Shown here piece after piece: positions 5,509 through 8,496 of a stretch of DNA of 9,406 nucleotides. Every line of letters starts with the position of its first letter. Positions within the stretch are counted from its first letter, which is position 1. Position numbers and translations under genes: made by a program. The notes below the pieces were generated by a model. The model made no database searches. It had not been told where the DNA came from and saw only the letters and a list, made by a program, of their open reading frames with translations. Source of the DNA: Phycisphaerae bacterium (GTDB lineage Bacteria; Planctomycetota; Phycisphaerae; Phycisphaerales; SM1A02); contig PBEX01000008.1 of the NCBI GenBank assembly GCA_002718515.1, positions 8,703 through 18,108 on the forward strand, read 5' to 3'.

Positions 5509-8496
5509 ATGTCATTAGATGTTTCAAAACTCACGATCGATTGCCATGAAGCACCGGCAATTGCTGAAAGACTCTTTTCAGTTAAGGGCGAAGCGACCCC
5601 ACTCAATGGCGAGCGGGATTTGAACTTCAAACTCGAAACAGCAGAAAAGACCTTCCTTCTTAAAATCAGCCGCCCTGACGAGCCAGAAGATTTCATCGAT
5701 TTTCAAACGCAGTTACTGAATCACTTTGAAATCAAGCACTCATGTGCAACATTTGAAGACAACGATGGTCAACAACGAAATGCTAGATTAGTTGAATGGG
5801 CTGAGGGAAGATTATGGTCTTCGGTAAACCCAATCACAGATTCTTTGCTTTTGAGCCTCGGTCAAAAAGCAGGTAATCTCACTGCGTCTCTTCAAACTTT
5901 TGAGCATCCCTACGCAGAAAGAGAACTGGAATGGGACATCGCCAATGCTCTCTGGTGCGAAAAACATATTGACTTATTCTCAACTGAGCAAAAAGCGTTC
6001 ATTTCACCATTCATTCATTCTTTTAAAGTTCTTCAACCTGCATACGCAGCATTTAGAAAAGGCATTGTTCACAATGATGTTAATGACAACAACATAATTG
6101 TGAGTGAAGATTTAAGAGAGCCGCTCGTCACCTCAATTATCGACTTTGGCGACGCCATCCACACTCAGATTATAAATGACCTTGCCATTACACTCGCGTA
6201 TGCAATCATGGGCAAGAACGATGCCCTTGCTGCTGCAGGAAAAGTCGTTAAGGGATACCACGAATCATTTAATCTTCAAGAAGAAGAAATAAGCGCTTTG
6301 CACACGTTAGTTGCAATTCGACTCCTTATTACAGTTACTAAAGCTGCACTAAACAAAGAATCTGAGCCAGGAAATGCATATCATCAAATCAGTGAGCAAG
6401 CGGCTTGGAACGCTTTAGAACATTGGTCGCAAGTGAACCCCGAGTTTGCTACATACTATTTCAGGAATGCATGTGGGTTTGATGCGCATCCAAACTTAGA
6501 TCAATTCAAATCATTTTGTAAGGAGCATTCATCCACACTGCAAACGCTAATTCCTACGCTCCCTTATGACTCAATAGAACAAATTGATATGAGCGTGGGA
6601 AGTAAATGGCTTGGGCATGAGTTTGAATATACCGATAAGACATTAAGTAGATATAAGTATGCCAAACTCTTTGCTCAACAACCAAATACTTTATTTGCGG
6701 GTGGATATTTAGAATATCGCCCATTTTATAGCACTGCCGCATACAAGTCAGAAGGGAATAATGGACCTGAATATCGCAGTGTCCATTTGGGCATTGACCT
6801 GTGTATTAAAGAAGAAACACCAATCCATGCATTTGCAGATGGTATTGTTTTTAGCGTTCATGACAATAACATTGATAAAGATTATGGACCGACTGTCATA
6901 CTTCAACATGAACTTGAAAATGGCGAACACTTTTATTCACTTTATGGTCATTTATCACTAAGTTGCATTGAGAATTTATCTAATGGCGATAATGTAAGAA
7001 AAGGCGATTTAATCGGGCACATTGGCGACGAAAGCGTTAATGGAGGATGGATTCCACATCTACACTTCCAACTTATGCTAAGTATGTTTGATGAAACAAC
7101 TAACTATCCTGGCGTTGCAACTCCTAATTTAGTGCCTGTTTGGCAGGATATTTGTCCAGATCCCGCTTTTGTCTTTAGTGACTTAAAACCATCTGCACAA
7201 CTGCCGATTGAAAAACATCTTCTTGAATATCGCAAGAAACATCTAGGTAAAAGTTTAAGTGTCTCATACGACAAACCACTAACAATTTTAATGGGCTCTG
7301 ACGTTTACCTTTTTGATCATACCGGGCAAAAATATTTAGATACCATTAATAATGTAGCTCACGTCGGCCATGAACATCCACGCGTTGTTCAAAGTGGACG
7401 TACTCAAATGTCAATCCTAAATACAAACACTCGGTACATGCATCCGACAATCAATGCATTGACAAAGGAGTTACTCGCAACTTTTCCAGATGAACTATCC
7501 GTTGTTCACTTTGTGAATTCTGGCAGCGAAGCAAATGAACTCGCGATGCGAATGTGTAAAGAAGCAACTAATCAAAAAGACATGATTGCCATTGAAGTTG
7601 GATATCACGGTAATACCCAGGGCTGTGTCGATGTGAGTTCATACAAATTTGATGGCAATGGCGGACATGGTGCTCCTGAACATACACACATCGTTCCCCT
7701 TCCAGATTCCTTTAGAGGCATTTATAGAGGCAAAGAAGAAAGTTACCGTTACGCTGAACACATTGATAAACAAATCCTGAATATCAAAGCAAAAGGTAAA
7801 AATGTAGCGGGTTTCATCTGTGAAAGCATCATGAGTTGTGGCGGTCAGATTGAATTGCCAGAGCACTATCTGCAATCAGCCTACGAGAGTGTGCGTAAAG
7901 AAGGCGGATTATGCATCGCTGATGAAGTACAAACTGGTCTTGGAAGGGTTGGAAAACACTTTTGGGGATTTCAGCTGCATGGCGTTGTTCCAGACATCGT
8001 CACTATTGGCAAACCATTTGGTAATGGCCATCCCCTTGGTGCAGTGATCTGCACACAAGAAGTTGCTGATGCTTTTGCAAATGGCATGGAGTACTTTAAT
8101 ACCTTTGGGGGCAATCCTGTCTCATGTGCAATTGGACTAGAAGTGCTCAAAGTCATTAAAGACGAAGGACTTCAAGAAAACGCACGAGATGTTGGCCAAT
8201 ACTTCAAGAAGGAATTACGAAAACTCTCGAATGAATTTAACATCATTCAAGATGTGAGGGGTCAAGGTCTATTCCTAGGTTTTGAACTCGTTGCATTAGA
8301 TTTAGAACCATTGCCGCAGCAAGCGAGTTATTTAGTTAACCAAATGAAAAAACTTGGCATTCTTATTAGTACCGATGGTAGAGATGCAAATGTCATCAAA
8401 ATAAAACCGCCTATGACATTCTCAACAGAACATGTTGATGAATACACTCTTCGCTTGCGTTCAGTACTTAAAGAGGATTTCTTGCAGTTGACCTAA
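5509..8496 (+). CDS. Trifunctional fusion: APH-type kinase, M23 peptidase, class-III PLP phospho-lyase/aminotransferase
   Basis: This is a single uninterrupted 995-residue protein with three domains and no signal peptide, so it is probably cytosolic. Residues about 15-300 form an APH-fold kinase like hydroxylysine kinase (HYKK/AGPHD1): IVHNDVNDNN gives catalytic Asp190 and metal-binding Asn195, and IIDFGDA gives Asp212. Residues about 400-550 form an M23 (LytM) zinc peptidase with all expected residues: His426 and Asp430 (HLGID), His481 (YGHLS), His517 and His519 (HLHF). Residues about 565-990 form a class-III PLP enzyme: NSGSEANE (670-677), DEVQTGLGR (805-813) and Lys835 in IGKPFGNGHPLG. This last domain resembles ethanolamine-phosphate and phosphohydroxylysine phospho-lyases (AGXT2L type). 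The likely chemistry is phosphorylation of an amino alcohol, then elimination of phosphate and ammonia to an aldehyde; the substrate is unknown. Residues 310-395 match nothing I recognise. The ATG has no Shine-Dalgarno site; CCTCC precedes it. Similar fusions exist in other bacteria as far as I recall, but the peptidase role is unexplained. Confidence 0.9.
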   Translation: MSLDVSKLTIDCHEAPAIAERLFSVKGEATPLNGERDLNFKLETAEKTFLLKISRPDEPEDFIDFQTQLLNHFEIKHSCATFEDNDGQQRNARLVEWAEGRLWSSVNPITDSLLLSLGQKAGNLTASLQTFEHPYAERELEWDIANALWCEKHIDLFSTEQKAFISPFIHSFKVLQPAYAAFRKGIVHNDVNDNNIIVSEDLREPLVTSIIDFGDAIHTQIINDLAITLAYAIMGKNDALAAAGKVVKGYHESFNLQEEEISALHTLVAIRLLITVTKAALNKESEPGNAYHQISEQAAWNALEHWSQVNPEFATYYFRNACGFDAHPNLDQFKSFCKEHSSTLQTLIPTLPYDSIEQIDMSVGSKWLGHEFEYTDKTLSRYKYAKLFAQQPNTLFAGGYLEYRPFYSTAAYKSEGNNGPEYRSVHLGIDLCIKEETPIHAFADGIVFSVHDNNIDKDYGPTVILQHELENGEHFYSLYGHLSLSCIENLSNGDNVRKGDLIGHIGDESVNGGWIPHLHFQLMLSMFDETTNYPGVATPNLVPVWQDICPDPAFVFSDLKPSAQLPIEKHLLEYRKKHLGKSLSVSYDKPLTILMGSDVYLFDHTGQKYLDTINNVAHVGHEHPRVVQSGRTQMSILNTNTRYMHPTINALTKELLATFPDELSVVHFVNSGSEANELAMRMCKEATNQKDMIAIEVGYHGNTQGCVDVSSYKFDGNGGHGAPEHTHIVPLPDSFRGIYRGKEESYRYAEHIDKQILNIKAKGKNVAGFICESIMSCGGQIELPEHYLQSAYESVRKEGGLCIADEVQTGLGRVGKHFWGFQLHGVVPDIVTIGKPFGNGHPLGAVICTQEVADAFANGMEYFNTFGGNPVSCAIGLEVLKVIKDEGLQENARDVGQYFKKELRKLSNEFNIIQDVRGQGLFLGFELVALDLEPLPQQASYLVNQMKKLGILISTDGRDANVIKIKPPMTFSTEHVDEYTLRLRSVLKEDFLQLT

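What the first reader, a model, noticed from the sequence alone, without database searches (positions are those of the whole stretch)
5509..8496. Kinase, M23 peptidase and phospho-lyase fused in one protein
All three domains keep their catalytic residues (Asp190/Asn195; His426/Asp430/His481/His517/His519; Lys835). Human hydroxylysine kinase and phosphohydroxylysine phospho-lyase are known to act in sequence, and the first and last domains match that pair. An intact zinc peptidase between them, in a protein with no export signal, is odd because M23 enzymes normally cut peptidoglycan outside the cytoplasm. One hypothesis is a self-contained catabolic machine: the peptidase releases or recognises an amino-alcohol-bearing peptide or wall fragment, the kinase phosphorylates it, and the lyase removes phosphate and ammonia. 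The peptidase could instead be a regulatory or zinc-binding scaffold. This architecture is known elsewhere but, to my knowledge, its biochemical role is not established.
Basis: partly seen in the sequence, partly recalled or inferred. Interest (0 to 1): 0.75.

Follow-up and report, generated by a model that had tools for sequence, protein, structure and literature searches.

The report
Hydroxylysine-type kinase–lyase with inserted peptidase
A single bacterial protein joins a small-molecule kinase, an apparently intact zinc peptidase domain and a phosphate-and-ammonia-removing enzyme; the fusion itself is widespread and known, but in some related bacteria its gene sits among genes that look like collagen breakdown, which suggests that it disposes of hydroxylysine, the modified lysine of collagen.

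Summary
Window 5509-8496 (+) is one 995-aa ORF: APH-type kinase, M23 zinc-peptidase module, class-III PLP phospho-lyase, all named residues present. The architecture is not new: two NCBIfam models span it and 80 loci from many phyla were fetched.

New here: (1) M23 is a removable ~240-aa insert; M23-less kinase-lyase fusions exist. Yet 255 of 258 scorable rows keep all five M23 residues. (2) In Bacteroidota-type relatives, among which the protein nests, collagen-type genes lie within 10 kb: proline-racemase family 16 of 46 rows (0.42 expected), GH63 glucosidase 8 of 19 (0.13); an alanine-racemase control gives 0 of 112. In a held-out sample 3 of 5 were positive; the other two have HGLS (2-oxoadipate dioxygenase) nearby.

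Best reading: cytosolic kinase/phospho-lyase for 5-hydroxylysine, with an M23 hydrolase of unproven substrate. Limits: 62 of 79 loci, including all 30 outside Bacteroidota, lack these markers; 13 genomes of the window's genus have neither proline-racemase-family nor HGLS genes. Nothing was assayed.

The parts
5509..8496 (+). kinase-M23-lyase fusion ORF, 995 aa
   Evidence: stop codon included
5536..6477 (+). APH-fold kinase domain (residues 10-323; Pfam APH 30-243); catalytic D190 at 6076-6078
   Evidence: D190, N195 and D212 in 121 of 121 close homologues
6496..6762 (+). N-terminal part of the inserted module (residues 330-418), least conserved part (mean 31.5% identity to P0001) but with E402, R404 and Y407 invariant in the 76-row alignment
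6781..7077 (+). M23 zinc-peptidase domain (Pfam 425-523): H426 6784-6786, D430 6796-6798, H481 6949-6951, H517 7057-7059, H519 7063-7065
   Evidence: 255 of 258 scorable rows keep all five; fold matches lysostaphin/LytM
7207..8478 (+). PLP class-III phospho-lyase domain (residues 567-990); PLP lysine K835 at 8011-8013
2143..3897 (+). neighbour: sodium:solute symporter (Pfam SSF), two genes upstream; relative L021 has a 581-aa ORF at the same offset that matches the L028 symporter by BLAST. A link to the fusion is not shown

Best explanation
A cytosolic multi-domain catabolic enzyme for a vicinal amino-alcohol. The kinase phosphorylates the hydroxyl group; the PLP lyase eliminates phosphate and ammonia to give an aldehyde. 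In the Bacteroidota-type clade that contains the window's protein the substrate is most likely 5-hydroxy-L-lysine from collagen, giving 2-aminoadipate-6-semialdehyde. The inserted M23 module is most likely an active zinc hydrolase that frees the amino-alcohol from a short peptide (for example a hydroxylysyl-glycine dipeptide) before phosphorylation. Shown by computation: domain order, residues, conservation, fold, gene linkage in part of the Bacteroidota. Inferred: the two-step chemistry (about 0.8), hydroxylysine as substrate in the collagen-linked members (about 0.6) and in the window's organism (about 0.45), M23 as an active hydrolase (about 0.6), M23 acting on hydroxylysyl peptides (about 0.25).
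Against: No marker gene lies beside the window's own copy or its 95% relative L021. 13 genomes of the window's genus have no Pro_racemase and no HGLS. 62 of 79 loci have none of ProRac, GH63, DAO or OCD in the DNA held; among Bacteroidota loci with 5 kb or more on both sides 11 of 25 have one, among 30 non-Bacteroidota loci 0. M23 is equally intact in those, so its role need not concern collagen. Subfamily calls for the neighbours are weak: the Cys/Thr racemase-like gene (370 bits, cut-off 540), DAO (288 of 383), DHDPS (166 of 206) and ALDH (105 of 750) all fall under the NCBIfam cut-offs; only OCD passes. The Cys/Cys copy of L036 is closest in the PDB to a proline racemase. HGLS is absent from 41 of 55 carriers. 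The nearest solved lyase is the phosphoethanolamine enzyme; no hydroxylysine lyase appeared among the chains shown.
Confidence: 0.5

Rival explanations
1. General amino-alcohol kinase/phospho-lyase: the physiological substrate is ethanolamine or 1-aminopropan-2-ol, and the collagen linkage in Bacteroidota is one local use of a broad enzyme.
For: Nearest solved lyase is ethanolamine-phosphate phospho-lyase. The fusion is widespread in lineages without collagen-type context. Thirteen genomes of the window's genus lack proline-racemase-family and HGLS genes.
Against: In one search, 10 of the 13 genus genomes have a separate class-III match of 40-44% identity with an open frame of about 450 aa, which could already serve such a substrate (not G001, the nearest, nor G004 and G009). 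HGLS and hydroxyproline-type linkage fits a lysine-derived substrate better than ethanolamine.
Confidence: 0.3
2. M23 is a structural or zinc-binding scaffold, or a sensor, without hydrolase activity.
Against: Not only the three residues expected to bind zinc but also H481 and H517 are kept: 255 of 258 rows; a pure scaffold should release those (inference).
Confidence: 0.35
3. Ordinary class-III aminotransferase with decorative domains.
For: Databases that name it say aminotransferase.
Against: Transaminase chains score far below the two phospho-lyases; the kinase domain next to it keeps its catalytic residues in 121 of 121 close homologues.
Confidence: 0.07
4. Enzyme of cell-wall fragment recycling, one option of the first reader.
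For: M23 fold matches are mostly peptidoglycan hydrolases. In four related flavobacterial loci (L039, L046, L061, L064) FtsA-, FtsZ- and YqeY-family genes lie one to five ORFs upstream.
Against: The other side of those loci holds sigma factor, ribulose-phosphate epimerase and PNPase genes, so this looks like a housekeeping region. No peptidoglycan-recycling family was recognised among the neighbours identified, and one search shows only 25 of 153 families.
Confidence: 0.1

Closest known systems
Human hydroxylysine kinase (HYKK/AGPHD1) with 5-phosphohydroxylysine phospho-lyase (PHYKPL/AGXT2L2) and ethanolamine-phosphate phospho-lyase (ETNPPL/AGXT2L1)
   Same: Same two enzyme families, expected to act in the same order; lyase domain 46% identical to ETNPPL over 403 columns.
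   Different: Separate proteins in human, without M23 domain. Gene names and pairing are recalled; the identifying paper is not held.
NCBIfam PRK06148 (NF004799, 'hypothetical protein') and PRK06149 (NF004800, 'aminotransferase')
   Same: Both models align to P0001 almost end to end, residues 10-989 and 10-990.
   Different: Scores 1095.9 and 674.3 lie under the curated cut-offs 1128 and 973, so neither model would formally name it.
Arthrobacter aurescens phospholyase A1RDF1 (PDB 5g4i)
   Different: The solved chain is a free-standing 446-residue protein.
M23 peptidases: lysostaphin (4qpb), LytM (2b13)
   Different: Sits inside a protein without signal peptide and carries further residues invariant in the 76-row alignment, E402, R404, R423.
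Marine collagen-utilisation gene cluster of Colwellia (PMC7883544)
   Same: Hydroxyproline epimerase, D-hydroxyproline dehydrogenase, deaminase, KGSA dehydrogenase and an OCD-type enzyme (passages seen); genes of the corresponding families surround the fusion in several Bacteroidota loci.
   Different: The word hydroxylysine does not occur in that paper's main text; the fusion would fill that step. Whether Colwellia has the fusion was not looked at.

Membership tests
Class-III PLP phospho-lyases (ETNPPL/PHYKPL type) | Closest sequence and structure relatives are phospho-lyases | tested here: met
Class-III PLP phospho-lyases (ETNPPL/PHYKPL type) | PLP-binding lysine | tested here: met
   K835 in 121 of 121 close homologues; invariant in the 76-row alignment
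Class-III PLP phospho-lyases (ETNPPL/PHYKPL type) | Releases phosphate and ammonia instead of transaminating | not testable with these tools
   needs an assay
APH-type kinases (hydroxylysine kinase) | Catalytic HxDxxxxN and a later Asp (motif recalled) | tested here: met
   H188, D190, N195, D212
APH-type kinases (hydroxylysine kinase) | Phosphorylates 5-hydroxylysine | not testable with these tools
   only database names of two relatives
M23 peptidases | HxxxD...H...HxH active site and fold | tested here: met
M23 peptidases | Extracytoplasmic location | tested here: not met
   no signal-peptide-like stretch in 121 of 121 (hydropathy only); so filed as an M23-fold domain, not as a typical M23 cell-wall enzyme
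M23 peptidases | Peptide-bond hydrolysis | not testable with these tools
   needs an assay
NCBIfam PRK06148 | Score at or above 1128 bits | tested here: not met
   1095.9 bits, residues 10-989 aligned
Collagen hydroxylysine catabolic locus | Linkage of the fusion to hydroxyproline-type or glycosidase genes in Bacteroidota | tested here: met
   with an Ala_racemase_N control; 17 of 49 Bacteroidota loci
Collagen hydroxylysine catabolic locus | Same markers in the window's own lineage | tested here: not met
   Pro_racemase 0 of 13 and HGLS 0 of 13 genus genomes; none recognised in the window

The most novel reading that the evidence does not exclude
A one-protein, three-step line for collagen's hydroxylysine: a cytosolic M23 hydrolase releases hydroxylysine from short collagen peptides, and the flanking kinase and phospho-lyase convert it to 2-aminoadipate semialdehyde; together with the exported-looking GH63 and GH2 glycosidases next door in some Bacteroidota this would be a glycosyl-hydroxylysine arm of bacterial collagen degradation, and, to my knowledge, the first M23 domain with an intracellular metabolic role.
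Probability: 0.22. Interest if true: 0.75.

Novelty: new member of a known kind. Interest (0 to 1): 0.5.

Why it matters
Collagen is a major animal protein, and bacterial routes for its hydroxyproline are described, but the marine collagen-cluster paper examined here does not mention hydroxylysine. A gene that co-localises with hydroxyproline-type, glycosidase and 2-oxoadipate genes is a directly testable candidate for that step, and gives a substrate hypothesis for a widespread fusion that NCBI models still call a hypothetical protein or an aminotransferase. The intact M23 domain inside a seemingly cytosolic enzyme is a real puzzle with a clear assay.

Tried and rejected
Plain transaminase: disfavoured. 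M64 peptidase beside the fusion as a collagen clue: dropped, because in the relative L021 that place holds an FG-GAP/UnbV protein instead. Symporter beside it as the transporter: left open; the L021 copy is only 21% identical to the symporter of locus L028, and the window's own copy was not compared. Collagen context outside Bacteroidota: not found (0 of 30 loci for four marker families, 110 ORFs next to the fusion in 28 loci gave 153 families, of which the first 25 are shown: AsnC/Lrp regulators in 4 and Asparaginase_2 in 3 ORFs, no collagen-type pattern). Context around three M23-less fusions was read by eye only. Hydroxylysine versus ethanolamine could not be read from the lyase sequence, because no hydroxylysine lyase was among the PDB chains shown. 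Literature: ten searches; I saw their listings and, for five papers, passages. None listed a paper on the bacterial fusion or on bacterial hydroxylysine phosphorylation; full texts were not searched beyond the terms given. One search (stricter threshold) returned nothing.

Limits of the counts. The 50 genomes belong to 50 of the 80 loci: those from L022 to L077 without six I left out; L021 and L078-L100 were not used. One search used 79 of 80 loci (L080 gave no ORF over 600 aa) plus the query. One search dropped 40 of 298 rows that lack a column, and contains near-duplicates; its three exceptions are all at H481 in fragment or partial proteins (P0162, P0252, P0254). Poisson values ignore relatedness and use rounded genome sizes. 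ORFs came from a simple longest-first caller. The held-out genomes are of the same order as many of the first loci, hence not independent by descent. The HGLS test was set up after HGLS had been seen near two held-out fusions. After checking, the odds of the cell-wall rival were raised from 0.08 to 0.10 because of the ftsA/ftsZ neighbours, and P0133 was downgraded to a partial sequence.
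Full report
The observation. Window 5509-8496 on the + strand is a single uninterrupted ORF of 995 aa. Pfam finds APH (30-243), Peptidase_M23 (425-523) and Aminotran_3 (591-986), all above their curated cut-offs. The window's own assembly is not held; the nearest locus, L021, is a Phycisphaerales MAG contig (ALOHA) whose copy is 95% identical.

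The architecture is widespread and known. A protein search scored 8000 candidates, of which 7998 passed; the 120 listed all have the three Pfam domains. NCBIfam has two models that span almost the whole protein, PRK06148 (1095.9 bits, cut-off 1128) and PRK06149 (674.3, cut-off 973). Among plasmids 390 of 72,556 records match at E <= 1e-50, but only 74 over at least 80% of the query, the listed ones from rhizobia and relatives. From recollection only, the 2012 paper that identified human hydroxylysine kinase used such bacterial bi- and trifunctional fusions as its clue; here I saw only its title in a reference list (PMC8154272), and the paper is not held.

M23 is optional but constrained. In the taxonomic family of the nearest genome, three genomes encode kinase-lyase fusions of 758-776 aa without M23; aligned with P0001, the M23 module is an insert of about residues 324-568. 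In 294 Planctomycetota genomes 22 matched at E <= 1e-90; of the ten loci taken (L001, L107-L115), seven are tripartite and three bipartite (L001). In a lyase-domain tree of 89 tips, 78 tripartite sequences form one clade (support 0.886) with three bipartite ones beside them (joint support 0.687, weak). Although removable, the M23 site is kept: 80 of 80 rows (79 loci and the query), and 255 of 258 scorable rows keep H426, D430, H481, H517 and H519; the three exceptions differ at H481 in fragment or partial proteins. In the 57-row module alignment with mean column identity 41%, 16 of 237 columns are invariant and include all five (about 7e-7 if invariant columns were placed at random). I take this as evidence for catalysis and not only folding; that is inference.

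Gene neighbourhood in Bacteroidota. Clustering ORFs around the loci showed recurrent neighbours. In locus L028 one strand carries in order OCD, Pro_racemase, aldose 1-epimerase, a GH63 YgjK-like glucosidase, a GH2 beta-galactosidase, the fusion, a second GH2, a symporter and a galactokinase, followed (after two short ORFs) on the other strand by a DAO and an S9 peptidase. OCD passes the cut-off of the pyrroline-2-carboxylate/piperideine-2-carboxylate reductase model (379.1 against 322), whereas the racemase-like gene, DAO, DHDPS and ALDH score under the cut-offs of their best models, so their exact functions rest on combination and motif. Across 79 loci, ProRac occurs in 14, DAO 11, ALDH 9, GH63 7, GH2b 7, DHDPS 7, OCD 6; 17 have at least one of ProRac, GH63, DAO or OCD, all among 49 Bacteroidota loci and none among 30 others. 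The 16 Pro_racemase genes fall into two types: 7 Cys/Thr copies on the fusion's strand, 6 in loci with OCD, and 9 Cys/Cys copies on the other strand, in loci with DAO (9), ALDH (8) and DHDPS (7) (L053_06 shows only the second motif). That Cys/Thr marks dehydratases is recalled; [quoted passage not shown] The Cys/Thr copy of L028 is closest to 6r76/6r77 (425 bits) and then to human trans-3-hydroxyproline dehydratase (315); PMC9309405 (passages) names 6R77 as a T3LHyp dehydratase and calls T3LHyp and T4LHyp major components of mammalian collagen. The Cys/Cys copy of L036 is closest in the PDB to a proline racemase (7pb3), so 4-hydroxyproline epimerase rests on its partners: epimerase, D-hydroxyproline dehydrogenase, deaminase and KGSA dehydrogenase form the hydroxyproline route (PMC4364671 and PMC7883544, passages). 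GH63 plus GH2 would suit the Glc-alpha-1,2-Gal-beta unit on collagen hydroxylysine: PMC8537180 (passage) describes that decoration as a substrate of GH65; PMC9061262 (passage) says that YgjK's natural substrate was assumed to be an alpha-glucoside other than nigerose; that a YgjK glycosynthase product was Glc-alpha-1,2-Gal is recalled. The GH63 and GH2 neighbours examined have hydrophobic, in part lipobox-like starts, unlike the fusion.

Is the linkage more than chance? In 50 genomes, counting genes within 10 kb of a fusion on the same contig: Pro_racemase 16 of 46 rows (14 of 50 genomes), expected 0.42; GH63 8 of 19 rows, expected 0.13; control family Ala_racemase_N 0 of 112 rows, expected 0.98. 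These genomes are related, so formal probabilities overstate the case; but two different arrangements and loci named as flavobacterial, Cyclobacteriaceae and other Bacteroidia share it. I then wrote down a prediction for five further genomes found by an even draw from one order (6 of 196 carry the fusion, one being the centre genome). Three of five had marker genes: L116 the hydroxyproline-type set, L118 GH2b, L119 the GH63-fusion-GH2b triplet. The other two, L117 and L120, have HGLS, the 2-oxoadipate dioxygenase/decarboxylase family PF07063, at 7.0 and 1.6 kb; L033 has it two ORFs away. Over 55 genomes 14 have HGLS and in 3 of 14 rows it lies within 10 kb, expected 0.15; this was looked at after the fact. 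2-Oxoadipate is expected downstream of 2-aminoadipate semialdehyde, the product from hydroxylysine, and not downstream of ethanolamine (pathway knowledge, recalled).

Results that point elsewhere. In four related flavobacterial loci (L039, L046, L061, L064) FtsA-, FtsZ- and YqeY-family genes lie upstream of the fusion, which a cell-wall reading could claim; the other side holds sigma factor, ribulose-phosphate epimerase and PNPase genes, so I read it as a housekeeping region. Outside Bacteroidota the neighbours differ: Lrp/AsnC regulators in 4 and Asparaginase_2 in 3 of 110 ORFs (only 25 of 153 families shown).

What this means for the window. P0001 nests inside a Bacteroidota-dominated clade (49 tips, support 0.999; it also holds three loci titled Gammaproteobacteria or Marinicella), grouped with L022 in a 22-tip clade (0.895), while other Planctomycetota tripartite copies are only 40-48% identical, so horizontal acquisition is likely. 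The collagen-linked L022 and members further out bracket it, though some nodes between are weak (for example 0.578), which favours the same substrate. Against this, neither the window nor L021 shows such neighbours, and 13 genus genomes lack Pro_racemase and HGLS. Hence about 0.45 for hydroxylysine in this organism against about 0.6 for the collagen-linked members.

Verdict. The added value is a testable collagen-hydroxylysine hypothesis and the demonstration that the M23 module is both removable and strictly conserved.

Noticed in passing
window 3883-5274 and 8567-9406, - strand: An M64-type peptidase with a dockerin domain (HEFGH present) and a second dockerin protein flank the fusion; in the relative L021 the M64 place holds an FG-GAP/ASPIC-UnbV protein.
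   Followed up: partly
G087 C12 and C1 (genome of L071): One genome carries two tripartite copies; the C12 copy has a GH63 gene 45 bases away and HGLS 13.3 kb away.
   Followed up: no
L033, L117, L120: 2-oxoadipate dioxygenase/decarboxylase family genes (PF07063; in L033 by similarity) near the fusion, in L117 and L120 with a LysR regulator.
   Followed up: yes
L029, L033, L036, L053, L056, L066, L075, L116: A DUF885 protein of about 570 aa recurs near the fusion in these loci (clustered; Pfam shown for L036 and L116 only).
   Followed up: partly
L039, L046, L061, L064: FtsA-, FtsZ- and YqeY-family genes upstream and an OmpA-family gene (shown for L039) downstream of the fusion; each family was shown by Pfam in one locus and extended by clustering.
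   Followed up: partly
L110: Stop-to-stop frame of 1435 aa around the tripartite fusion in a Planctomycetota genome; the first 420 residues were not examined and may be non-coding.
   Followed up: no
L082: A Thorarchaeota MAG chromosome carries the fusion; binning error versus transfer was not tested.
   Followed up: no
L089, L090, L094, L097, L101: An Lrp/AsnC-type regulator lies near the fusion in these Alphaproteobacteria (cluster, tally, annotation), which suggests an amino-acid-like inducer.
   Followed up: partly
window 280-741 (- strand) and 695-1852 (- strand): An L21-like ribosomal protein (named by eye) and a class I/II aminotransferase; the reading frames as called overlap at 695-741.
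   Followed up: no
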